A stretch of DNA of 64,000 nt from a virus. Location of the stretch: IMG/VR virus record IMGVR_UViG_3300050821_017570, positions 1 through 64,000 of that record, one strand, 5' to 3'. Each line of letters opens with the position of its first letter. Within the stretch, counting starts at the first letter, position 1. The translations under genes were made by a program, and so were the position numbers. A model generated the notes under the pieces. That model had not been told where the DNA came from and ran no database searches. It worked only from the letters and a program-made list of their open reading frames with translations. Below are positions 1 through 63,871 of this stretch, piece by piece.

Positions 1-123
1 TCATACGTATTCCAGGCACCCTTTACGGCATTCACAGCCTTGGGCTCATACGTATTCCAAGCACCCTTGACCGCATTGACCGCCTTCGGCTCATACGTGT
101 TCCAGGCACCCTTGGCCTTGTCC
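1..123. repeat. 45-bp in-frame tandem repeat
   Basis: Two full 45-bp units (1-45 and 46-90) and a third partial unit (91 to about 123) each begin tcatacgt[ag]ttccaggcac or a close variant. The unit length is a multiple of three, so it adds 15 residues per copy to the overlapping minus-strand gene. The array probably continues left of the window. Confidence 0.85.
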
Positions 124-212
124 ATCAGCGATGGGGCTGGTGCGGGTACGGCCGGTTGAACCGGGGCCTCGGCTGGTGCGGTAGGATCTGCGGAGGTCTT
201 ACTAATGGACAT
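1..212 (-). CDS. N-terminus of a repeat-containing protein (cut by left edge)
   Basis: About 70 N-terminal residues are visible; the rest lies left of the window. The start at 212 is preceded by a GAGG box. After an Ala/Pro-rich leader of about 28 residues, the protein enters a perfect-phase 15-residue repeat of the form KGAWNTYEPKAVNAV, encoded by 45-bp tandem DNA repeats. The repeat carries one Trp and one Tyr per unit and alternating Ala/Val and Lys/Glu, which would suit an amphipathic or coiled structural element. It lies just downstream of the portal gene, so a virion or scaffold role is possible, but the function is unknown. Confidence 0.75.
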   Translation of the reverse strand, partial: MSISKTSADPTAPAEAPVQPAVPAPAPSLMDKAKGAWNTYEPKAVNAVKGAWNTYEPKAVNAVKGAWNTY

Positions 213-242
213 GATGCCCTCTATCCGCTTACCTTACCTCGA

Positions 243-2081
243 CTACTGGGGTTGACCACCCTGCTGGCCTTGACCCAAAACCTGCTGCTGACCCTGGGAG
301 GCCGCCTGTTGGCGCAGCTTGTCCATCTTCGCAGTCACCATGCTGTGGAGGTCCTGGTTAGACTCACGGATCTGGCGAAGCTGTTGCTTACGGTCATAGT
401 CCGGCATCGAGACAAGCTGTTGGGCAATCTGGTCAGCCTGATCGGCCATCGCCTGGATGGTCGTCGGCTGCTGACCACCCGACCCCATACCTGGGATGCC
501 GCCCATCCCGCCGGCCGCCGCTGCGGCGTTTGGCTGCCCAGCCTGCTGTTGCTGGGACAGGAGAGCCTGACTACCAGGAGCCTGGTTAAGCTGTTGGGCC
601 GCACCCATTTCCTGCTCTTCCTGCTGCTGCTCGTTGGCCTTCTCCTGCTCCTTCGCAACCGTCTTCTGGTGCTGGAACACCTTCTTGACCTCTTCCTCGG
701 CGTTGATGCCGATGGCCGCGAGAGCCGTCTGGGGCGAGATCTGATTGGCACTCATGAGCTGCATGAGGATCTGCTTGCGCCCCTCATCGTACGAGACGGT
801 TGTCTTCTGCATGATCGCAGTGGTCTCGTCGATATCGAAGTTACGGGCGCAGACCTTAATCATCCAGGCGAGGATTTGGTTGTAGAGGGCTGGGACGGAC
901 TGCCAGCACGACTCAAACAGCTGAAGCGCCATAGGGGCGGCCTGCACCGATAGTGTCATGCTATGGTATTCGAGCGGGATACCGAGGCTGTTCAGGTATT
1001 CCTGATGACGGAACTTGAGCTTGTCTGGCGGAATCAGGGTCGCACCCTCACCGCCTGCAAACTGGTAGGTCAATGGATAGGGGGCGGTGTGATAGGTCGC
1101 GGGGTCGGCCCGGTGCTGGGCGACGATACGACGAACCGCACGAACAAACCGATCCATACCCTGGGTCTGCACGGGGTCCTGGACCTGACCAGGCGCCGGA
1201 GTCGGTGACAGGATTCGCATACCGAGCGTGTAATCCAAACAGATCGCTTGGTCGGCCCGATTGATCGTCTGCATCAGCCATGCCATGCGGAAATTGCTGA
1301 TACTGCGTGGGACACCCCAACCGCGGGTATCCATGCCGGTGATGATAGGCTCGTCCATGTGAAGGACGCACTCGTCATCGAGTTTCACGTCCCCATCGTA
1401 AGCGACCGCTTCGAGGACCGACATCGGCGTGTCCTCGATATGAATGGGTGCACCACGACGAATATCTTCGCGCACATAGTTCGGGATACGCCAGTAGATC
1501 TCTTTACGCTTCGAGTGACGGTTGAACCCGATATCGATTTCAAACGGGCTGTAACGCTCTAACCGAACCTTCGAGATATCCGGGTCACGACGATCCTTGC
1601 AGATATAGTCGCGTGCATCCTTGCACATCGGGCAACCGCCACCGGTGCGCTTCCAGTGCACGCCTTCGGTATCGAACCCAATACCATAACGGACCCGTCG
1701 AATCGGCTGCTCGTACCCACATTGACGACAAATCAAAAAGCGCTGAAACGGGATGTAGAGCGAAACAATCAGGTTGCCATAGCAGAGGAACTCATCAGCA
1801 CACGACTGTAGTTCTCGCCGGTAATTCAGATGCTTGTTGAACAGATCCTTGAACTGGGACTCTTCGTCTGGCTCAAGATCTGGAAACTGAATCGAGGTGA
1901 TGAAGTGGCTGCCAACCCGCTGGAAAGCTGTCCTAAAGTTACCGTCTGTTAACCAGAGATATTGGGCCCACCACAGGATGAGGGTGTGGGAGGTCGGCAT
2001 CGCCATCGTGGCGTAGTCCAGCCAGGGGAGTTGTGCCTCCCGCATAGCCGGCATGGTCGACCTAAAGCTGTCTAGTCCCAT
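243..2081 (-). CDS. Portal protein with inserted zinc ribbon
   Basis: The 612-residue protein has the organisation of a phage portal: an N-terminal part typical of the clip and stem approach, a central wing region, and a Gln-rich C-terminal tail (residues about 490-612, rich in QQQ and Gly) like those that line the portal crown. The portal would form the dodecameric DNA channel at one capsid vertex. An unusual feature is a four-cysteine zinc-ribbon-like insertion, CRQC near residue 117 and CPMC near 150. The start at 2081 follows an AAGG box. Assignment rests on overall pattern, length and head-gene context rather than a single motif. Confidence 0.7.
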   Translation of the reverse strand: MGLDSFRSTMPAMREAQLPWLDYATMAMPTSHTLILWWAQYLWLTDGNFRTAFQRVGSHFITSIQFPDLEPDEESQFKDLFNKHLNYRRELQSCADEFLCYGNLIVSLYIPFQRFLICRQCGYEQPIRRVRYGIGFDTEGVHWKRTGGGCPMCKDARDYICKDRRDPDISKVRLERYSPFEIDIGFNRHSKRKEIYWRIPNYVREDIRRGAPIHIEDTPMSVLEAVAYDGDVKLDDECVLHMDEPIITGMDTRGWGVPRSISNFRMAWLMQTINRADQAICLDYTLGMRILSPTPAPGQVQDPVQTQGMDRFVRAVRRIVAQHRADPATYHTAPYPLTYQFAGGEGATLIPPDKLKFRHQEYLNSLGIPLEYHSMTLSVQAAPMALQLFESCWQSVPALYNQILAWMIKVCARNFDIDETTAIMQKTTVSYDEGRKQILMQLMSANQISPQTALAAIGINAEEEVKKVFQHQKTVAKEQEKANEQQQEEQEMGAAQQLNQAPGSQALLSQQQQAGQPNAAAAAGGMGGIPGMGSGGQQPTTIQAMADQADQIAQQLVSMPDYDRKQQLRQIRESNQDLHSMVTAKMDKLRQQAASQGQQQVLGQGQQGGQPQ

Positions 2082-2120
2082 AAGACCTTATTCTGGTTAT
2101 CTGATTAGCTCAGAACAGGC

Positions 2121-3014
2121 CTAACCCGCCTTTACCAGCACGACATGCCGGTACCCAGCGTAATCGTATGCGAGCCCAAACGACACGACCTGATATGACT
2201 TTGGAGTATCGCCCGCAACCGTCACATCCAGTATCTGCTCGACATCGTGTGGTGGTGTAACTACAGCCACCGTACCATCGTTAGGAAAAATCAGTGCCAG
2301 AACGTTATCTTCATCCACGACGTCAAAGCAGAACACTCGCAGCTGCCCAAGGTGTTTGCCCTTGATGGTGACTGGTCGTAGTTTTGGTTTCGCAGTCATC
2401 TTGGGTTCCTCAGGCTGGTAGACCTGGACCGGTGCTGGAGCTGGTGGTGGGACATATGGTCCGACCGTCTGTACCGGCATCGGCTGGACAGCTGGCTGGT
2501 AGGGAGCCGGTGCCTGCGGTGCCGCCTGATAGGGCGATGGCGGTGTCGCCGGTGGTAACTGTAAGGCTGGTAGGACCTGACCCAACATGGCCTGCTGAAG
2601 CATCTGCTGGGCTGCCCGAACGGCTTCTTCCGACACCAGCTGCTGAGCCGTGGGTGCCGGACCACCCACGTGGACTGGGCCTTGCGAAGTGGGCTCCTGA
2701 GCCTGCATGGGACGGGTGACGGTCGTGTTGCGCCCCAGCTTGATCATGCTGGCTGACGTTCCATCGACGAGTGCGATCTCAGGAGCGGAAGGTGGACTAT
2801 TAGGATCGCCACAATTCCGTTGGACCAGAACCGGAGCGCTTTTCTGACCGCGACTCAGATGGGGAATCACACTACCCCGCCCGCCCAGAGCGGTCACGAC
2901 CTGATCCTGCTGAGGATCCATCTTAGCCTTCAGATGGTCTGGTCGGGACGACGCGACTGCGATCGACATGTCGGCCATGCGATGAACGGGTGCTTGGGCG
3001 CCATCGTCAGACAT
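2121..3014 (-). CDS. Linker-rich protein in head region, unknown function
   Basis: The 297-residue protein starts at 3014 behind a GGAG box. Residues about 90-205 form a long Pro/Ala/Gln-rich low-complexity linker. Residues about 210-297 form a compact predicted beta-rich domain ending FGLAYDYAGYRHVVLVKAG. It lies directly upstream of the portal gene on the transcript. The two-part build, a disordered arm plus a small globular domain, fits a minor head or decoration protein, but I do not recognise the family. Confidence 0.8.
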   Translation of the reverse strand: MSDDGAQAPVHRMADMSIAVASSRPDHLKAKMDPQQDQVVTALGGRGSVIPHLSRGQKSAPVLVQRNCGDPNSPPSAPEIALVDGTSASMIKLGRNTTVTRPMQAQEPTSQGPVHVGGPAPTAQQLVSEEAVRAAQQMLQQAMLGQVLPALQLPPATPPSPYQAAPQAPAPYQPAVQPMPVQTVGPYVPPPAPAPVQVYQPEEPKMTAKPKLRPVTIKGKHLGQLRVFCFDVVDEDNVLALIFPNDGTVAVVTPPHDVEQILDVTVAGDTPKSYQVVSFGLAYDYAGYRHVVLVKAG

Positions 3015-3054
3015 AGTAACTCCGGCTGCTACTGTAGCGGGCCATTCCGATAGA

Positions 3055-3849
3055 TCAATCGCCCGTGGAACCTAATACGGTTTCGTGCTGAAGGATACGT
3101 CGGTAGCTCGCGCGTGCCTTACCAGCGGGTTCGGACTCAATCGCTTCGTAGGGTTCAAACGCATCCAACACGTCATCTGGTACGGATGAGTTGGTTAGTA
3201 TGAGGTTACGAGGCGACGTTTGCGGTAGATGGTCTTGGCAATCCCAGACTCGGGTCAGGTCCGCACCAGCGCGCCGAACGGTCGATTTGACGTTAAGAAA
3301 CTCATACGATTTACGCCGCCCAATATAGTTGAGCCAAACCACATCACACAGTCGGACCAATTGGCTCAACTCCTCCCGCTCCACCGACCAGGCTTCACGC
3401 CCCTGGTAGGCGTCTCCGAACCCGACATCCCAATGGGATTCGGCGGTCTCAGATTCGGTCAGATAGTCGCTACTCGATTTACAGACAATACGTAGACGAC
3501 CTTCGTCTTCAAACTTCCCCACGAGGTGAAAGTGCTTTCGGCACATATCGATCACCACCGGGTCGATCTCCACCACCGTAAGATCAAATCCGGGAAAACA
3601 GCTCAGCAGGGCGATCGGGCCTGCACCTGACCCCAATCCGAGCATGACACCAGAACCGTTAGGCTTATCGGCCCCAGCCATCAGCCAGCCATTCATGTAG
3701 AGGGATTCCGCTACCGGGCCTGGCTTACCGGTCTGGTCGAGAAACGACCCACCCTGAACCTGATGGTCGATAGCGAGACATCTGGCTTCCGGTTTATCAA
3801 ACACCCAGACTGAGCCAAACATCCCTGGTCGGGATTCCAATAGCTTCAC
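3055..3849 (-). CDS. Spermidine-synthase-like / Rossmann methyltransferase-fold protein
   Basis: The 264-residue protein has a class I SAM-binding fold signature: the glycine loop GLGSGAG near residue 71, followed by the acidic strand VVEIDPVVIDMCRKHF about 20 residues later. This spacing and the EIDP motif resemble spermidine synthases and related aminopropyl- or methyltransferases. The substrate cannot be read from the sequence. The start overlaps the stop of the 1395-residue gene by four bases (ATGA), so the two are translationally coupled. Phage head operons sometimes carry such genes, but the role is unclear. Confidence 0.75.
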   Translation of the reverse strand: MKLLESRPGMFGSVWVFDKPEARCLAIDHQVQGGSFLDQTGKPGPVAESLYMNGWLMAGADKPNGSGVMLGLGSGAGPIALLSCFPGFDLTVVEIDPVVIDMCRKHFHLVGKFEDEGRLRIVCKSSSDYLTESETAESHWDVGFGDAYQGREAWSVEREELSQLVRLCDVVWLNYIGRRKSYEFLNVKSTVRRAGADLTRVWDCQDHLPQTSPRNLILTNSSVPDDVLDAFEPYEAIESEPAGKARASYRRILQHETVLGSTGD

Positions 3850-6800
3850 TTGGTTGGTTTCTTGTGGTAGTGCTTGTACAGAAGGTATCCAAGTAACCCT
3901 ACTGCGCCAGCCCCCAATACGGCCCCACCACCGATCAGATTGTTACGTATGTGCTGGCCGGTCTGGATAGCCGTATTGTAGAGACCCGCACTGGTGTTCT
4001 GCGCGTTAAGCCCCACGACTGAATTCATCAGCTGTGACTGCCCATACGTGGTGGGGTTATGCTTGGAAAGCCACGGATCCAAATGTTTCAGCACATTGGT
4101 CTGCTGGTCTGGTGACCATGTGTGGTAGTCGCCCCTCAGCCCCTCAGATGCACCTACAGCTTCTGCCGCGCCACGCAATTGCGTGATAAATCGGTCAGGA
4201 TTGAAGTGACTGACATTCTCAGGTTTCACTCCAGCGGCCTGTAGATTTGCCAGCATTTTTGCGAACGTTTTTACGTTCTTACCCAACAGGTCAGGATTCG
4301 AGTCACTACCAGTGTAGCCGGGCTGAGCGTTAAACGCCACCATATCAGGATGGATCACATCATCTGCACCAAACTGAGCCGATGCTCCGGGTTTGGTCTT
4401 TATGGCTGTGAAGATCTGGGTTCGTGGATAGTCGACATTTGGGTCACCACTCGGATAGGCGTACTCTTTCATGCGCTGGAGGTAGCCAGCGAGCGGTCCA
4501 TTAGCGAATTCATGGTAATGCTGAGCCGAACCCGCATTCCAACGAGCCTGTGGCGGAACACCTGGAATCTCTCGAATCCAGTGCATGGCCTTCTCCATCG
4601 GAACACCCAACGGGTGAATCCGCATGGCCTTGCTGCCCTCAATAGCATAACCCTTGGCCGGTTCATCCAAGCCCACCTCGCCAGTATTCCACTTTCTGGC
4701 TTGCTCGGAAAACTCATTCAGCACCGCATTATCTTTCGGTGTTAGAAATACTTCACCTGCACCGACGGCCCCAAGTCCGGTCAGCCCGAGTGCTCCAGCC
4801 CCCATAAGGGCTCGACGCTCACCTTTATCCCACGTATTTTTCTTTTTCGCAGGCGCACCCATTTGGGCCGCGACCTTGACAAGCGAACTGATTTTCGGCA
4901 TACCCAACGGCTCGGTCGTAGGTTGAACTGGTTGCGCCGCCACTGATACGACCGGTTGCGCCTTACGCTTGCGCTTGAGATAGTTGAGGATCACACGGGC
5001 CCGGGCGCGATCGAGATCTCGATAGCCAGCGTTCTGTTTCAGCCCCATCGATCCATACATGTTCTTGAGCACTTCCTCAGGAGGTGCCCAAACCCCGCCC
5101 TCAAATAGCGGAGCTGCCGCTGGATCCACGTCACCCACATTGAGTGTGACGTCATACCCGTGGACGCCTGGTTCGTCCGCCCCATTGGGTGGAAGATACC
5201 GAAGGGTCGGTTCATACGGAGCCTTGGCTCCGACCCCACTGGTGGGAAACCGATACCGACGATTCTGATCGGGTGCCACGTAGACCCTATTCTCAGGGTC
5301 AAACATCACGTACTCAGACCGCGGCGCCGTGGTGACACGATCAGCTTGTTTGGTCTGACCGGGCAGGCCAAGCATCTGTTGGACCGTTTCAACCGTATGG
5401 GCTGGGTCGCTGAAGAAGTGCTGGGCCTCACAGAACGGGATACCGGCAGCATCGGCCGCCCCACCATCATGATCCAGGTTGTCACCCACCATGACGCATT
5501 TGGCCGGATCGAGTCCAAACCGCTTCATCACATGGACAATCATGGTTGGGGCAGGCTTCAGAACATCCGGATGTGGTGCCGGAGTATAGCAGATGTCGTC
5601 GAGTGTTCCGCCCATCAGACCAATCGTCTCACGTTGCAGGTCACCCAACAGGTCTGGCGTCAGACTCGAATGATCGTCTCGATCACCACGGCAGGTGTGG
5701 TTGGTCACCCCGATGATCCGACAGCCCATCTGCTTGAGCGGATCGAGCGTTTCGATCCTATTCGGCATGATGAACTGATCGCCGAGCGTGTCGTACCGGC
5801 CGTTGCGCCACTGCCGTACCGTTGAATCCATATCCAACAGGATAGCCGGAAAGTCACCCTGATCGTCTGGCTCTTCGGCCGGCTTCATAGCCAGCATAGG
5901 GCAAGCTTCTTCAGCTGGAGAACCGGCCGGGTCACCATCGTCGACGGCCGTCTTGGCTAACTGCGGATTGTTGCCACCATGAGCGTTTGGTGACGGCACC
6001 TGTGGTGCATGTTCATACCCGTGGAGGGCCGCCTCGTGATCGACCGGCGTTACAGCGGTTTGACGTTTTTCTGGTTTGACCGTCTTGGCGATATCGCCGG
6101 GCTGGACCTCATCACCGGCACCGGAATTGTCGCCGGCTTTGGGGTTTTCACCGTCCTGGATTGGTCCAGTTGCGGGTCCTTTGAGGGACGAGATGACACC
6201 GGCCCAATGGGTCGCGGCAAGCTTTTCGCCCGCGAGGGCCAGTTTGACCGCTGTGGTGAATCCATTGTTGGCTGCTTTCTCTGCTTCCTCAATCGCCTGA
6301 AGACGTGTCTGGTTAGGCTTCTCGGCCCACTTGTTGTCTTGGTCGCTCATACAGCCACGTAGAAAGCTCTTGGCTTCCTTGAACGGAATGGTCGCGAACG
6401 GCTCGTTATCCGCATGCTCGGTACCGAGAGAACCGCCATCTAGAGCCAGGAAGAAGTAGGTACGCTCACCATCAAACCCATCGACCAGCTTCTTATCTTC
6501 TGGCCATATCGCTTCCACCACACCCATCGGTTTGATATGGAGGAGCTTACGATCGGCCTCTTCGATAGATTCACGGTATGCGGCAAACTCAGGCTCTTCG
6601 CCATCATCGATCCCACCGCCGGGCATCAATAGGTAGCCGGGCTTCCGAAACCCGATGATCCCGTCCTTACTGTATATCACTACTTCGGAACGACTGCGGA
6701 GGTGCGGGTGGTCGCTGTTGGACTGGTCGGAATCTGGGGTCTCGTCGGTGTCCTGCTCGGCGGCCTTTACGACCCCGTGCCTGCCGCCCGAGTAGCGGGT

Positions 6801-8033
6801 CGGCACTCCGGCCAGCCCTCTGGTGAGAATCCGGTTGGAGGCCTTGCGGGGGTTGCCACCGGTTGGTTGAGGGTTTCGTGGTGCGTTGGTTTCTGGCCAC
6901 CCAACCGGCTCCTCAGTTTTGTTAGCGGATGTCTTCATCTGGTGGTTAGCGTGCTGTCTCAGCTTACCTTCGAACGCGTTAGCGGCATCATGGGCGTCGT
7001 CGTAACTAACCCCACTTCTCATGAGTCCGCGTTCAGTTAGCTCGTGCGAGAGAATGAAGGCTCGATCCAGCTCCGGCACCTCTGTGTCGATCCAGATCTC
7101 ATTCTCGGGGATCCAGTCGTAGACCAGGTGGTGACCGCCACCGATGTAATCGGTATGGCCATCGTTACGGACCTGTACCCCATCGACCAACCGGACGTCA
7201 GTACCGTCGGGTAGTGTGACCCAGGGGGTCGTCGTGATACTTGCCGTCTTCTGCACCCACGCCCGTTTAGCCAACTGCTGCTTCAGTCGGTTACGATACT
7301 GGTTCCGATACAGGAGGGCACTCAGGACACCGATCGCACCCCCAACCCCTAGGCCAATGAGCCCCATCTTGCCGCCTGAACGCAGCTGGGATGGACTCAT
7401 CTGGATACCCAGCTGGTTGGTTGGCAGGGGAGCTTCACCTGTGACGTGCGGGGCGTTCATCACGCCAGTGAGCGAACCTGTCGTCCCACCCAGAAGGGCT
7501 CCCAGCTCACCCCAGCGGACCGGCGTGTCTTTCACCTGCTCGTACTGTTGGGCTGCCTGCTGAGTCTCTGGATCTGCAAGACGCCGTTGGATCCCTGCGG
7601 GTGCGGCGCGCAGGATACGTTTCGCACGCATCAATCGTTTGGGGTCCAGCACCGTGTCGGCCAGCTCTAGTGATGCACCTGTACCCAGCCCGATACCACC
7701 ACCGATCGCTAGCCCTTTGAGAGCAGACCCTTCGGCTGCCCGAGGATCATTCCCAGCCGCATGCCCAAGTAGCCCAGCCTTTGCACCGATACCAAACCCA
7801 CCCACCGCGGCACTCGGGAGGGCTCGCTGAAGCACACGCTCCCAAAGTGGGTGCTGTCGACGATCCTCAACCTGCTTGACCGTCTCTAACGCATCAGCAA
7901 CCGATGAGACCTGCTCGGGTGTCGGTTGGGCAGGTGTGGTTACCGGCGAAGGGGTCGATGACGGCAACACATCACCAATGCGCTGAAGCGCACTCGTGAT
8001 GGGTGTGATGTGATGAGTGAGCGATTCACTCAT
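3846..8033 (-). CDS. Giant multidomain protein: zincin-like + Nudix + HAD phosphatase domains
   Basis: The 1395-residue protein begins with Gly/Ala-rich hydrophobic stretches (about 75-125 and 175-240). A zincin-like segment follows with HELTER near residue 329 and a downstream H in YDDAHDAANAFE. A Nudix domain has a near-complete Nudix box near 471-491 (G-x5-E-x7-RE-x2-EE). A HAD-type phosphatase domain has DMDST near 733, VTNHT, and GDNLDHD near 848. The C-terminal part carries hydrophobic segments near 1073-1092 and 1368-1386 and a basic tail. The domains are joined by long polar linkers. The gene lies upstream of the portal gene and downstream of a small head gene. It could be a virion-packaged polyfunctional or processed protein; this is inference. 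Confidence 0.8.
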   Translation of the reverse strand: MSESLTHHITPITSALQRIGDVLPSSTPSPVTTPAQPTPEQVSSVADALETVKQVEDRRQHPLWERVLQRALPSAAVGGFGIGAKAGLLGHAAGNDPRAAEGSALKGLAIGGGIGLGTGASLELADTVLDPKRLMRAKRILRAAPAGIQRRLADPETQQAAQQYEQVKDTPVRWGELGALLGGTTGSLTGVMNAPHVTGEAPLPTNQLGIQMSPSQLRSGGKMGLIGLGVGGAIGVLSALLYRNQYRNRLKQQLAKRAWVQKTASITTTPWVTLPDGTDVRLVDGVQVRNDGHTDYIGGGHHLVYDWIPENEIWIDTEVPELDRAFILSHELTERGLMRSGVSYDDAHDAANAFEGKLRQHANHQMKTSANKTEEPVGWPETNAPRNPQPTGGNPRKASNRILTRGLAGVPTRYSGGRHGVVKAAEQDTDETPDSDQSNSDHPHLRSRSEVVIYSKDGIIGFRKPGYLLMPGGGIDDGEEPEFAAYRESIEEADRKLLHIKPMGVVEAIWPEDKKLVDGFDGERTYFFLALDGGSLGTEHADNEPFATIPFKEAKSFLRGCMSDQDNKWAEKPNQTRLQAIEEAEKAANNGFTTAVKLALAGEKLAATHWAGVISSLKGPATGPIQDGENPKAGDNSGAGDEVQPGDIAKTVKPEKRQTAVTPVDHEAALHGYEHAPQVPSPNAHGGNNPQLAKTAVDDGDPAGSPAEEACPMLAMKPAEEPDDQGDFPAILLDMDSTVRQWRNGRYDTLGDQFIMPNRIETLDPLKQMGCRIIGVTNHTCRGDRDDHSSLTPDLLGDLQRETIGLMGGTLDDICYTPAPHPDVLKPAPTMIVHVMKRFGLDPAKCVMVGDNLDHDGGAADAAGIPFCEAQHFFSDPAHTVETVQQMLGLPGQTKQADRVTTAPRSEYVMFDPENRVYVAPDQNRRYRFPTSGVGAKAPYEPTLRYLPPNGADEPGVHGYDVTLNVGDVDPAAAPLFEGGVWAPPEEVLKNMYGSMGLKQNAGYRDLDRARARVILNYLKRKRKAQPVVSVAAQPVQPTTEPLGMPKISSLVKVAAQMGAPAKKKNTWDKGERRALMGAGALGLTGLGAVGAGEVFLTPKDNAVLNEFSEQARKWNTGEVGLDEPAKGYAIEGSKAMRIHPLGVPMEKAMHWIREIPGVPPQARWNAGSAQHYHEFANGPLAGYLQRMKEYAYPSGDPNVDYPRTQIFTAIKTKPGASAQFGADDVIHPDMVAFNAQPGYTGSDSNPDLLGKNVKTFAKMLANLQAAGVKPENVSHFNPDRFITQLRGAAEAVGASEGLRGDYHTWSPDQQTNVLKHLDPWLSKHNPTTYGQSQLMNSVVGLNAQNTSAGLYNTAIQTGQHIRNNLIGGGAVLGAGAVGLLGYLLYKHYHKKPTK

Positions 8034-8036
8034 CGG

Positions 8037-8534
8037 TTAGACCAGTCCGTGGAGCCGTCCCCACAGCTTGGCGAGTCGGACATCCAACATCGCATTGGCG
8101 CTCATTTTGTTCATCCGATGCGCGATCTGCTGTTCCGCGAGGTTTATAGCCCCAGGCGTTTCCTGCGCAAGCTGTTGAGCTTTCTGAGCCGTCAGTGCCA
8201 TGGTGGTACCCTTGGGCGGTGCAGCCGCATTGACGGGTGCCGGTGCCTGAGGGGCTGGCTTCTGAGGAGCCGCCGGTTGAGGTGCAGCTTTGGCAGGTGC
8301 CGCAGGGGTCGCTACCAGCTTTGGTACCGGCGGTGCCCCAGGGATCATCTGCTGCTGCTGTACCTGCACGGCCAGCTTGGCGAGCGCGGCCTGGACCTTT
8401 GGGCCTAACTCTTCAGCCTTCTTGACGTGCTCTGGAAGCTTTTTGCCCTTAGGCGTGTGGGCGGCCCAACGCTTCGCCATAGCTGGTTCGTTTGCGAACA
8501 TCCAGCCACGTTGAGCTTTACTTTTAAACGGCAT
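8037..8534 (-). CDS. Small conserved phage protein with MPFKSKAQRGWMFAN start
   Basis: The 165-residue protein opens with a basic, aromatic N-terminal motif (MPFKSKAQR-WMF, then AKRWAAHTP) that I recognise from many small phage proteins of unknown function. A Pro/Ala-rich linker (about 65-115) and a short alpha-helical C-terminus follow. Only three bases separate its stop from the start of the next, 1395-residue gene. It may be a head-associated or DNA-binding accessory protein; no catalytic motif is visible. Confidence 0.75.
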   Translation of the reverse strand: MPFKSKAQRGWMFANEPAMAKRWAAHTPKGKKLPEHVKKAEELGPKVQAALAKLAVQVQQQQMIPGAPPVPKLVATPAAPAKAAPQPAAPQKPAPQAPAPVNAAAPPKGTTMALTAQKAQQLAQETPGAINLAEQQIAHRMNKMSANAMLDVRLAKLWGRLHGLV

Positions 8535-8605
8535 ACCTAATAGTTCCTTCAGCGCTCACTACCGATTCTCCCAACCAGCGGAGGCCCAACAAGCCTCTTA
8601 CCCGA

Positions 8606-13669: not shown

Positions 13670-14833
13670 CTAGCGTGCTATCTGGGTGAGAAACTCATAG
13701 GCTCGTAGGAGATGCCGATCTGGTTTGTGGTCTGGTAGGCTGTCCAACGCAAGCTGGTAGGCCTCCACAGGTGTGGTGCGGGTGTCGTCATCATCATCAT
13801 AATCGGTCCAATTGAAATGCGGGGTCGGAATGGCGCTTCCACAATCGTTGACCCCAAGGTACTCCTGAGTCGCTGCCGCCAGCCCACTCACGATACCGCT
13901 CCGACACTCGTAGGCCCAACGCCTCATAATATCCTTTTGCCGGTACATCAGGTTGATCGGCAGGAGTGGGCCGATCGTCTCAAACCGATGGGTCCACTGC
14001 TCGATTTCCAGAAGATCGTGCTCCATATCCCCGTTTAGGTTCGGTCCATACCGTATGACATACCGGTAGAGGAGGCTGCCATCGATCCGCGGGACCGACA
14101 GCTGTGGCAGTAGGTATCGGCTGCCCGCGTACACGAGAGGTGGGTAGGCCGTGTCGAGCCACTCCAGATCACCCACCGTGAGGCCTTCTCGAATCGCCTC
14201 TCTGGTCTCCACAATCATGGCGGCCAACTCCATCGCCTCGGGCCCTACCTGGCTGTTCCAGTACTGGTACGCGTGGCGGTAGTTGGTGATCTGGAAGAAA
14301 TGCGTCATCTCGTGCAGAATAATCGCCCTGGTGGGTAGCCCGGTTTTCGAGTACGGCACCCGCGGTATCACAACCGTCCCCTTGTAGGTGACATGGGCAA
14401 ACCCTGCGATCGGCGCCTGGGCTAGCACGAACTGGTGGTGTCGCCGCTCAATGAATGACTTCAGGACCACAATATCCGACATGGTGGCGGGCTGACTGGG
14501 TAGCCGATCAAACAGCTCGATCGCCCGTATCAGCAGCTGAACCGCCCGGACCCGTCGATCGAGTCGTGGTCCATCGAACGTTCGGATCTCCTGCCAAAGT
14601 GCTGGCGCGAGCGCGATATGCTCACACAGATCCATCGCGTCCCCAACCCCAAGTTCCCACGCCGCACCTCTGGTCCATAGGCGTGGGTTGTTGATACGAC
14701 CATCGTGAATGGCTGTCAGTGGGGTACCGGTGTTGGTCGTGGGAAGCAACCACTCCTGCTCATCCGGTGTCATCGGCGGAGCAGGAGTGTGGGGGAAGAG
14801 GGTTCCGAGCCAACAGATCAATGCGAGCAGCAT
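13670..14833 (-). CDS. Exported zincin metallopeptidase-like protein
   Basis: The 387-residue protein begins with a hydrophobic segment (MLLALICWLGTLF) like a Sec signal or membrane anchor. It carries the zinc motif HEMTH near residue 173, preceded by PTRAIILHEM, with acidic residues about 25-35 residues downstream (PEAMELAAMIVETREA) that could supply the third ligand. Family placement beyond zincin is uncertain. It sits between a fibre gene and a terminator, so it may act on the cell envelope or on virion proteins. Confidence 0.7.
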   Translation of the reverse strand: MLLALICWLGTLFPHTPAPPMTPDEQEWLLPTTNTGTPLTAIHDGRINNPRLWTRGAAWELGVGDAMDLCEHIALAPALWQEIRTFDGPRLDRRVRAVQLLIRAIELFDRLPSQPATMSDIVVLKSFIERRHHQFVLAQAPIAGFAHVTYKGTVVIPRVPYSKTGLPTRAIILHEMTHFFQITNYRHAYQYWNSQVGPEAMELAAMIVETREAIREGLTVGDLEWLDTAYPPLVYAGSRYLLPQLSVPRIDGSLLYRYVIRYGPNLNGDMEHDLLEIEQWTHRFETIGPLLPINLMYRQKDIMRRWAYECRSGIVSGLAAATQEYLGVNDCGSAIPTPHFNWTDYDDDDDTRTTPVEAYQLALDSLPDHKPDRHLLRAYEFLTQIAR

Positions 14834-39988: not shown

Positions 39989-40492
39989 TCAATCCTTAGG
40001 CGGTCGCAACGACGCCGGCATCCGGGCTGGATGCGGAAGCGGCTGGGCGACACCCTTCAGGCCCACCAATCGGTTCTGCTCGGCCAGCAGTTGCTCGATA
40101 TAGACGGCTTCCCACAGATTCGCATGTTGAGTTTTCGGATACAAGGCTTCCCACTGAAAGAACCGCTTCGAATGGTCCGGCTCATTCTTTACCGGAAATT
40201 GGTCCTGGAACGTGTGACATAGTTCATGCCACAGGATGGCGTCCAACACCTCTTTGGGGACCCAATCGGCCGCTAACACGAGGCTGATATAGATGACCTG
40301 TTCATCGGACGCGTAGATACCGAAGACGATGTTTCGCTTACTGGCTCGCTTCGGATACATCCACACGCACACCGGCAGTACTTTTTGCCAGGGCGCATAT
40401 TTGTCCCGTAGCTTGCGAAGCCTCGCATTGAGATCGGGTGGACCGGATGGCTTACCCATACCGTCATGTTCAGGTATGGGTAAGCGGAACAA
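39989..40492 (-). CDS. SprT-like zincin metallopeptidase
   Basis: The 167-residue protein has the zinc motif HELCHTFQ near residue 87, preceded by LDAILWHELCH, and a later His about 18-20 residues on (PDHSKRFFQWE). This fits a SprT/M48-type zincin. The annotated start is a TTG; a more conventional ATG lies at 40459. A cytoplasmic role in protein turnover or DNA-protein processing is possible; the substrate is unknown. Confidence 0.8.
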   Translation of the reverse strand: MFRLPIPEHDGMGKPSGPPDLNARLRKLRDKYAPWQKVLPVCVWMYPKRASKRNIVFGIYASDEQVIYISLVLAADWVPKEVLDAILWHELCHTFQDQFPVKNEPDHSKRFFQWEALYPKTQHANLWEAVYIEQLLAEQNRLVGLKGVAQPLPHPARMPASLRPPKD

Positions 40493-52512: not shown

Positions 52513-52730
52513 AGGTCGTCCTGTCGAGCGAGTGGTGCTTTCTCTACAATGGGCTTGGCCTGATCTACCGCGCTAACGTAGTGTGCCTCTCGATCAGCTT
52601 TCTCGGCTCGCAGCTGTTCCAGTTCGGCCAGCAACGGATCGACATCGGGCGCGGCATAGAACAAACCAGTCGCAGAGTGCTCCATGCGGTTGGTGGCCCA
52701 ATCGTCTGAATATTTTTGAAGCTGAATCAT
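52509..52730 (-). CDS. Small helical protein
   Basis: The 73-residue protein has a charged helical middle (DPLLAELEQLRAEKADREAH). No motif is recognised. Four-base overlaps with both neighbours support expression. Confidence 0.65.
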   Translation of the reverse strand: MIQLQKYSDDWATNRMEHSATGLFYAAPDVDPLLAELEQLRAEKADREAHYVSAVDQAKPIVEKAPLARQDDL

Positions 52731-53182
52731 ACACCCAATCCTAGTATGAGTCTAAGACGTGAACGAATATCCATCAGGACGAGACCAAGGTGGTTCTCGC
52801 CAACTCCATTACACCGACCCCAGAATTGGTCACCCCAACCGTTCTCCTCGACCAATTCATGTGGGTATGTGTTGACCAGACGTTCTGCCAGATCCGCATG
52901 CCGGGTGAATTTGTCCAGGTTGACCGAATACATCACCCCAACCCGCACGTCGAGCCAATCGGGACGATGGCGCTCCGGCTGGGTTCGACCCAACCGCATG
53001 GCCTGCCCACAGGTCAGCGTCGTACCCGGCAGGGCAAACACGGCCCGCATCCTGACGTCGGGTAGCTTGGCCGACTGGTAAGCGTGCTCGGTCGACGGAT
53101 ACAGCAGACCCTCGTACGCCACCTCACAGAGATGGAAGTTGGAGAGCCAGCGGTACTCGCCGTACATCTGATCGATCGTCAT
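52727..53182 (-). CDS. NADAR / YbiA-like protein
   Basis: The 151-residue protein shows the hallmark of the YbiA/NADAR superfamily: YRWLSNFHLCEVAYEG and YPSTEHAYQSAKL near residues 10-45, and later DLAERLVNTYPHELVEENG followed by WGDQFWG. Members act as N-glycosidases; some reverse ADP-ribosylation of DNA guanine and others act in riboflavin metabolism. A phage copy could counter host ADP-ribosylation-based defence, but this is inference. Confidence 0.88.
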   Translation of the reverse strand: MTIDQMYGEYRWLSNFHLCEVAYEGLLYPSTEHAYQSAKLPDVRMRAVFALPGTTLTCGQAMRLGRTQPERHRPDWLDVRVGVMYSVNLDKFTRHADLAERLVNTYPHELVEENGWGDQFWGRCNGVGENHLGLVLMDIRSRLRLILGLGV

Positions 53183-63130: not shown

Positions 63131-63871
63131 TTAGCGTGGGGTTGTGTGCCTCAAACTGCCAGACAGACGGAAGCTGCGACGCTCCCGTCGTGACCCCACG
63201 GGGGCCGCATGAGCCATCCGGAATCTGCGGACCTCAGCATCGCTCACACCCTCTAGGGACGCGAACTCAAAATTCGTCGCTTGGTTCCACCGCATGGTAT
63301 GCAGGTCGAAATACCCAATGTAACCACCCTTGGCCAACTCAAACGCTCGGTGAACGTTCTGCCGGAAGCTACACGGGCCGACAAACCCAGGTTCGAACCA
63401 CTGAGGGGTCACGAAGTCACTCACGAGGGTGTTGTTGATCTTATACCCTAACGAGTCGTCTTCGACCGCATCAGCTACCTCGTAAGCCATGATGCGTGCG
63501 GTATGTGGGTCCAACACCGAGAGATTAACGTAGGGGTCTAAAATTTGCTCAAGAAGTTCGTGACTCACCGTAACTGACAACGCGTCGCCCGCCTGCTGGT
63601 CCGCCCGGGCAAACACCTTGCCGATCGGCTTGCCTGAGCTACTAAGGTCGTGGTATCCAAGCGCTCCAGCCTGATCCGCATCGTCCAGAATCAGCAGCTG
63701 CCAACACGCCGGGTCGATCGGATCGGTTCGACCGCAGAACTCCAGATGTGCATCAAGATCCCAGATTGGTGCAAAGTCCCTACTGATCTGGGTTTGAAGA
63801 TCTGGCACCATTGCCGCCACCACCGCATCTGATGTAATGGTCGAATGGTTAATCAGGCTGATACAGATCAT
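63131..63871 (-). CDS. Zincin-like protein with SHELLEQ motif
   Basis: The 246-residue protein has SVTVSHELLEQILDPYV near residue 100, a pattern in which SHELLE is followed by DP, and an upstream strand LILDD. The H-E-x-x-E arrangement is non-canonical for a zincin, so metal binding is plausible but unproven. The C-terminus is basic (RRERRSFRLSGSLRHTTPR). Function unknown; a metallopeptidase role is inference. Confidence 0.65.
   Translation of the reverse strand: MICISLINHSTITSDAVVAAMVPDLQTQISRDFAPIWDLDAHLEFCGRTDPIDPACWQLLILDDADQAGALGYHDLSSSGKPIGKVFARADQQAGDALSVTVSHELLEQILDPYVNLSVLDPHTARIMAYEVADAVEDDSLGYKINNTLVSDFVTPQWFEPGFVGPCSFRQNVHRAFELAKGGYIGYFDLHTMRWNQATNFEFASLEGVSDAEVRRFRMAHAAPVGSRRERRSFRLSGSLRHTTPR

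What the first reader, a model, noticed from the sequence alone, without database searches (positions are those of the whole stretch)
3846..8033. 1395-residue protein joining zincin-like, Nudix and HAD phosphatase domains beside the portal gene
The gene contains HELTER near residue 329, a near-perfect Nudix box near 471 and HAD motifs near 733-848, separated by polar linkers and flanked by hydrophobic segments. These enzyme types do not usually belong together. Placed in the head operon, this suggests a virion-packaged enzyme set that could be processed by a protease. Nudix and HAD activities could act on nucleotide-derived signals such as ADP-ribose or (p)ppGpp.
Basis: partly seen in the sequence, partly recalled or inferred. 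Interest (0 to 1): 0.72.

Follow-up and report, generated by a model that had tools for sequence, protein, structure and literature searches.

The report
Modular enzyme protein in phage head operon
This large phage protein, encoded among the genes that build the virus head, strings together a Nudix hydrolase, a HAD phosphatase and a metallopeptidase-like fold, and related phages show these pieces being swapped between head genes, so it is probably a packaged multi-tool delivered into the host cell, a known strategy in a new and testable form.

Summary
Window 3846-8033, on the MINUS strand, encodes 1395 aa with a Nudix domain and a HAD domain, both above Pfam cut-offs, and a conserved HELTER segment. 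It lies two genes upstream of the portal. It is best read as a phage 'polyvalent protein' (Iyer 2017): a virion-associated mosaic of unrelated enzymes.

Comparison with three related phage contigs adds three results. (1) The constant core is a Gly-rich N-terminus, the Nudix domain and a C-terminal domain (aa 893-1026). HAD is present in 2 of 4 homologues. The HELTER module and the C-terminal extension are optional and move between genes. (2) HELTER is a real, widespread, unnamed domain: 49 virus and 28 cellular-contig loci, no Pfam family. Its signature is HExxE-x14-H-x6-E, not HExxH. A confident AlphaFold model resembles IrrE/SprT/PolyVal metallopeptidases. Elsewhere it is fused to portal and prohead-protease proteins. 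(3) The HAD belongs to the GmhB/HisB/PNK-phosphatase group, which gives no support to (p)ppGpp as a substrate.

Virion packaging, processing and substrates remain inferred. The overall class is known; the architecture and the HExxE domain family are new variants worth testing.

The parts
3846..8033 (-). whole gene, 1395-aa polyvalent-type protein
   Evidence: homologues in three phage contigs
7254..8033 (-). aa 1-260: N-terminal Gly-rich/hydrophobic region, present in all complete homologues
   Evidence: 30% identity to the L012 homologue; Gly-zipper Pfam match just under cut-off in the L017 homologue; hydropathy
6924..7244 (-). aa 264-370: HELTER domain, HExxE zincin-like fold, optional module
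   Evidence: 49 viral and 28 genome-contig relatives; AlphaFold pLDDT 91.6; fold matches
6759..6908 (-). aa 376-425: short conserved TGGNPRKASNR block
   Evidence: 60% identity to the L012 homologue
6354..6704 (-). aa 444-560: Nudix hydrolase domain, box at aa 472-494 (window 6552-6620)
   Evidence: catalytic Glu/Arg residues invariant in four homologues
5379..5852 (-). aa 728-885: HAD-IIIA phosphatase domain, optional module inserted between Nudix and C-domain
   Evidence: absent at the same place in two homologues
4956..5357 (-). aa 893-1026: C-terminal core domain of unknown fold, present in all four homologues
   Evidence: 40-56% identity; confident strands and helices in the model
3849..4847 (-). 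aa 1063-1395: optional module bounded by two hydrophobic segments
   Evidence: 28% identity to a module placed before Nudix in L079
8037..8534 (-). 165-aa protein with N-terminal PFKSKAQRGWM motif (phrog_1375), upstream neighbour; the motif begins the polyvalent homologue itself in L017
3055..3849 (-). 264-aa spermine-synthase/methyltransferase-like neighbour, conserved in order in L016 and L017
2121..3014 (-). 297-aa neighbour just upstream of the portal
   Evidence: similarly placed genes before the portal in L012, L016, L017
243..2081 (-). portal protein
   Evidence: E 2e-41 to Salmonella phage Arash gp204 'portal protein'

Best explanation
The gene encodes a phage polyvalent protein: a head-associated polypeptide that carries a Nudix hydrolase, a HAD phosphatase and a zincin-fold HExxE domain into the virion and, with the DNA, into the host cell. 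Most likely steps. (1) It is made with the portal and other head proteins and built into the prohead; its Gly-rich N-terminus and hydrophobic ends serve in anchoring or membrane passage. (2) The HELTER domain and/or the phage's head maturation protease cut it in linkers, freeing the domains. (3) In the new host the Nudix domain splits a nucleoside-diphosphate-X compound (ADP-ribose-type signal, NAD-type molecule or RNA 5' end), and the HAD domain removes a phosphate from the product or from an RNA end, countering nucleotide-based defence or repairing RNA. Shown here: domains, conserved catalytic residues, head-operon context, and module gain, loss and relocation among relatives. Inferred: packaging, injection, cleavage, metal chemistry, substrates.
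For: Pfam and NCBIfam domains. Nudix fold by model, VIA Z 11.8-13.0 to ADP-ribose pyrophosphatases and NudC, Foldseek also RppH. HAD closest to GmhB 4pnh, E 9.5e-8. Syntenic homologues upstream of the portal in L012, L016/L079 and L017. Module shuffling: HELTER missing in L012 and L017, and in G002 found at the end of another gene whose homologue in this phage lacks it; the C-terminal extension moved in front of Nudix in G002. HELTER sits in Rctr197k_173 together with InPase and 2H (LigT) domains, which are catalogued in phage polyvalent proteins (PMC5512222), and is fused to portal and S78 prohead proteases, and to CCA-adding plus GNAT enzymes. Standalone HELTER gene between portal and capsid genes in ctSlx955. 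Head protease candidate in the genome. Nudix packaging and head fusions are documented (PMC9503650).
Against: No virion proteomics. The close homologues are few (three contigs) and all from metagenomes. The HAD model was of low confidence (2 sequences). HELTER lacks HExxH, so self-cleavage is doubtful. HAD is absent from two homologues, so a joint Nudix-HAD pathway cannot be essential.
Confidence: 0.68

Rival explanations
1. It is mainly a structural or assembly protein of the head (portal-proximal internal or scaffold-like protein) and the enzyme domains work during head assembly in the producing cell, for example as maturation or moonlighting parts, not in the next host.
For: Gly-rich N-terminus and hydrophobic ends; always next to the portal; HELTER fused to portal and prohead proteases.
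Against: Nudix catalytic residues are invariant and HAD motifs intact while the linkers diverge, and diphosphate or phosphate hydrolysis has no known role in head assembly.
Confidence: 0.17
2. The Nudix and HAD domains serve RNA-end repair or nucleotide metabolism late in infection and are not packaged; their place among head genes only reflects late expression.
For: HAD-IIIA relatives include PNK 3'-phosphatases: a phage kinase-HAD protein is the best tblastn hit. The genome has RNA ligase, RlaP, NADAR and HD genes.
Against: Those repair genes lie about 70 kb away; this protein carries Gly-rich and hydrophobic regions unlike soluble repair enzymes, and its HELTER module recombines with head genes.
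Confidence: 0.1
3. About the HELTER part only: it is not peptidase-like but a metal-binding helical hairpin like the DtxR/IdeR C-terminal domain, used for metal binding or dimerisation.
For: Spacing H-x3-E-x14-H-x6-E equals IdeR His79-Glu83-His98 (and Glu105) (PMC4689551; 24 of 35 relatives). PF02742 weak matches, best 1.9e-5, 3 of 38 members. DtxR-like chains at Foldseek PDB ranks 1, 4 and 7.
Against: A preceding beta sheet and a conserved second Glu (E331, 37 of 38) as in zincins. Whole-domain matches are IrrE, M30, Wss1 and viral metallopeptidases. PF02742 is below its cut-off for the window sequence.
Confidence: 0.3

Closest known systems
Phage polyvalent proteins (Iyer et al. 2017, PMC5512222)
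   Same: One large polypeptide with several unrelated enzyme domains, in the late/virion gene cluster of a portal-type phage, variable architecture; a HELTER relative shares a polypeptide with InPase and 2H domains, both catalogued there
   Different: A HAD domain in such an architecture is not named in the passages read; the peptidase-like domain is HExxE rather than HEXXH; constant Nudix plus new C-domain core
Virion-packaged or head-fused phage Nudix proteins (PMC9503650)
   Same: Nudix domain linked to head genes, predicted to be injected
   Different: Here Nudix sits inside a much larger mosaic; PDB matches are to ADPR-ases, NudC, RppH and NUDT15; membership in the T4 NudE clade was not tested
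Virus Rctr197k protein 173 (APU88970.1, 2039 aa)
   Same: Shares the HELTER domain (33%), very large mosaic protein in a structural gene region
   Different: No Nudix or HAD; carries InPase, DUF7178, ParB-like and 2H domains; HELTER His replaced by Arg (REVVE)
IrrE/ImmA, SprT/Wss1 and PolyVal zincin-fold metallopeptidases
   Same: Sheet plus two C-terminal helices with HE on the first; Foldseek viral probability 0.98-1.0 for top annotated peptidases
   Different: HExxE with a His in place of the third-ligand Glu; activity unknown
GmhB/HisB-N/PNK-type HAD-IIIA phosphatases
   Same: Motifs I, II, III and IV conserved; best PDB relative GmhB 4pnh
   Different: Cys zinc-loop residues lost; embedded in a mosaic

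Membership tests
Phage polyvalent proteins | 2 to 15 domains with disparate activities in one polypeptide | tested here: met
   Nudix, HAD, zincin-fold HELTER, C-domain
Phage polyvalent proteins | Encoded near virion late genes of a portal-type phage | tested here: met
   Portal two genes downstream, order conserved in relatives
Phage polyvalent proteins | Variable domain combinations between relatives | tested here: met
   HAD, HELTER and extension gained, lost or moved
Phage polyvalent proteins | Delivered into the host with the DNA | not testable with these tools
   needs virion proteomics and an injection assay
Nudix hydrolases | Nudix box with catalytic Glu/Arg and Nudix fold | tested here: met
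   Pfam above cut-off; residues invariant in four homologues; VIA Z up to 13.0
HAD phosphatases | Motifs DxD, T/S, K, GDxxxD | tested here: met
   DMD 734, T 777, K 826, GDNLDHD 850
HAD phosphatases | Rossmann-like HAD fold | tested here: inconclusive
   Model region mostly below pLDDT 60 with only two sequences
Zincin metallopeptidases | HEXXH motif | tested here: not met
   HExxE here, in 36 of 38 viral and nearly all cellular-contig relatives
Zincin metallopeptidases | Fold of sheet plus two C-terminal helices | tested here: met
   pLDDT 91.6; IrrE Z 5.7 over 75 residues, M30 5.2, Wss1 4.6, scores modest and mixed with helical matches; viral metallopeptidase and IrrE entries
Zincin metallopeptidases | Proteolytic activity | not testable with these tools
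   needs assay
DtxR/IdeR C-terminal metal-binding domain | PF02742 gathering score | tested here: not met
   15.1 bits against cut-off 27 for the window
DtxR/IdeR C-terminal metal-binding domain | His-Glu-His ancillary site spacing | tested here: met
   may be convergent

The most novel reading that the evidence does not exclude
The HELTER domain is an unrecognised family of zincin-fold metalloenzymes with a swapped ligand set (HExxE...H instead of HExxH...E) that phages pass between head genes (portal, prohead protease, polyvalent proteins) to cut or mature virion cargo or to attack a host target.
Probability: 0.3. Interest if true: 0.7.

Novelty: new variant of a known kind. Interest (0 to 1): 0.5.

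Why it matters
It gives a concrete, testable set of head-associated enzymes: a Nudix-plus-C-domain core with exchangeable HAD and HExxE modules. The HExxE family, without a Pfam entry, recurs in head genes of many uncultured phages and in candidate-phyla genomes. If active, it would add a new metal-ligand variant of the zincin fold and a clue to how giant virion cargo is processed.

Tried and rejected
tblastn of the C-domain and of the C-terminal extension against phages, and of HELTER against plasmids: no hits. Scans of IMG/VR for closer homologues of the whole protein gave only one; for the C-domain only the three already known contigs; for the extension only G002. Portal scan of genome contigs: no relatives. 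A duplicated Nudix origin of the C-domain: full-length alignment in register but hhalign probability 1%, so not claimed. HAD fold by AlphaFold: failed for lack of sequences. (p)ppGpp as a substrate: nothing in the HAD or Nudix relatives supports it. Streptococcus phage Javan583 MuF-like protein with a similar C-terminal HHELMELGLM...AH segment: weak, E 0.3, kept as a lead only. Literature search for HEXXE metallopeptidases in phages: none held.

Full report
OBSERVATION. The gene is the 1395-codon ORF at 3846..8033 on the minus strand. Pfam finds NUDIX (aa 463-554, 27.9 bits, cut-off 21.1) and HAD hydrolase (aa 753-864, 37.0 bits, cut-off 26.4). NCBIfam places the HAD near the HAD-IIIA, GmhB and histidinol-phosphatase models, none above its curated cut-off. 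HELTE is at aa 330-334, the Nudix box at 472, DMDST at 734 and GDNLDHD at 850. The window is part of a 187,139-base IMG/VR virus record.

CONTEXT. All genes are on the minus strand, in the order: 165-aa PFKSKAQRGWM protein (phrog_1375), the 1395-aa gene, a 264-aa spermine-synthase/methyltransferase-like gene, a 297-aa gene, and the portal. The portal is recognised by 23-25% identity over 74% of its length to Salmonella phage Arash and Vibrio phage portals. A head maturation protease candidate (G000 185719-187044, phrog_18299, E 1.2e-4) lies at the far end of the contig, as if the contig were cut between portal and protease; no end repeat was found.

HOMOLOGUES. Portal-guided searches gave three contigs with the same neighbourhood. 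L012 has a 917-aa homologue (Nudix and HAD; no HELTER, no extension). L017 has an 837-aa homologue (Nudix and C-domain only), whose frame opens with the PFKSQ motif through an apparent ATT start. G002/L079 has a 999-aa homologue in which the extension module sits between the Gly-rich region and Nudix. The 264-aa neighbour is conserved (37% to L017). Between the window and L012, identity is 68% in Nudix, 61% in HAD and 56% in the C-domain, but 29-30% in the linker and N-terminus. In two homologues HAD is absent precisely between Nudix and C-domain. So Nudix plus C-domain is the constant core; HAD, HELTER and the extension are optional.

HELTER DOMAIN. The segment matches Virus Rctr197k_173 (33%, E 2e-6) and, weakly by tblastn but along the whole domain in alignment, a standalone 122-aa gene between portal and capsid genes of podovirus ctSlx955. 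The three-row alignment found 49 IMG/VR loci. In 38 non-redundant sequences I308, P309, E312 and W314 are invariant; H330 is kept in 36, E331 in 37, E334 in 37, H348 in 37 and E355 in 36. Another 28 loci come from genome contigs of Patescibacteria, Ignavibacteria, Bacteroidetes and small archaea, nearly all HExxE. No Pfam family covers it; PHROGs gives only single weak matches. In other phages it is fused to portal proteins, to S78-type prohead proteases, and to CCA-adding plus GNAT mosaics; neighbouring genes of the 32 loci tested include matches to baseplate, terminase, portal and major head families. In G002 it is fused to the end of a gene whose homologue in the present phage (G000 148730-149437, 36% identity) lacks it. 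This is direct evidence that the module moves between phage genes.

HELTER STRUCTURE. AlphaFold with 36 sequences gave pLDDT 91.6: a small sheet, then the HExxE helix, then a helix with H348 and E355. In PDB no match is strong, but the whole-domain matches are zincins: IrrE (Z 5.7, 75 residues, 2.7 A), Lugdulysin M30 (5.2), Wss1 (4.6), mixed with purely helical matches of similar score. In viral models the best hit is a 1019-residue fragment (E 6.5e-8), followed by entries named metallopeptidase, peptidase, IrrE, SprT-like and PolyVal metallopeptidase. The ligand spacing H-x3-E-x14-H also equals the ancillary metal site of IdeR (His79, Glu83, His98; PMC4689551), and PF02742 matches weakly. I read it as a zincin-fold domain with a changed ligand set. 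The conserved second Glu favours an enzyme; activity is unproven, and the model carries no metal.

NUDIX, HAD, C-DOMAIN. The second model (617 aa, 4 sequences) folded Nudix (pLDDT about 70-90) with VIA Z 11.8-13.0 to ADP-ribose pyrophosphatases and NudC; Foldseek also matched NUDT15 and RppH. A broad range of NDP-X substrates fits. HAD was not modelled confidently, but its sequence matches GmhB 4pnh (E 9.5e-8), and the best phage hit is a kinase-HAD protein that looks like a polynucleotide kinase-phosphatase. The C-domain is confidently five strands and two helices, fold unassigned.

MECHANISM. Iyer et al. define polyvalent proteins as 2-15 domain mosaics with unrelated activities, encoded near late genes and predicted to be injected with DNA (PMC5512222). 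A later survey reports Nudix proteins fused to MuF, portal and head proteases (PMC9503650). The present protein meets the architectural and contextual criteria. Packaging, cleavage (by HELTER or by the head protease), injection, and Nudix-then-HAD action on ADP-ribose-like or RNA-end substrates are inferred. The genome's NADAR, RNA ligase, RlaP and HD genes make a role in NAD/ADP-ribose or RNA-repair conflict plausible.

NOVELTY. The kind is known. The Nudix/C-domain core with exchangeable HAD and HExxE modules is a new variant, and the HExxE family is, as far as these libraries show, unnamed. The supplementary domain catalogue of Iyer et al. could not be read here, so it may list this domain under another name.

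Noticed in passing
head-region proteins: window 1-8600 and G000 181500-187139: Tripeptide K[LTVIA]A is enriched (34 against 11.5 expected by shuffling, z 7.2) while the reversed form is not (11 against 11.4); in the 1395-aa protein it falls at aa 262, 423, 586, 597, 604, 694 and 1053, several of them in linkers. Post hoc; candidate processing sites only; weak or absent in some homologues.
   Followed up: partly
window 52727-53182 (-): NADAR domain protein (Pfam E 4.8e-22), an ADP-ribose/NAD-linked enzyme family.
   Followed up: no
L004:10433-13258 (G000 74433-77258, -): RNA-repair-like cluster: RlaP, RNA ligase with PHA02142 OB-fold, HD_4 domain.
   Followed up: no
window 13670-14833 and 39989-40492 (-): Two other zincin-like candidates with canonical HExxH: HEMTH in a 387-aa protein without Pfam match, HELCH in a YgjP/SprT-like protein below the Pfam cut-off.
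   Followed up: no
window 63131-63871 (-): 246-aa protein with another HExxE motif (SHELLEQILDP), no Pfam match; relation to HELTER not tested.
   Followed up: no
L017:3675-6218: The PFKSQKQRAWMYAN motif (phrog_1375 type) reads in frame into the polyvalent homologue from an apparent ATT start, suggesting that this motif belongs to the same virion protein system.
   Followed up: partly
L012:17278-21684: 1468-aa protein that looks like an RNA polymerase beta subunit, encoded downstream of the portal in the related phage; Arash has an annotated RNAP subunit beside its portal.
   Followed up: no
window 4956-5357 (-): The C-domain may be a degenerate Nudix-like duplicate: strands and final helices align in order with Nudix, but profile comparison gives only probability 1%.
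   Followed up: partly
L019:4903-6138 (Streptococcus phage Javan583): 411-aa protein next to the portal ends in HHELMELGLMAKGMSYDEAH, similar to HELTER's helical half.
   Followed up: no
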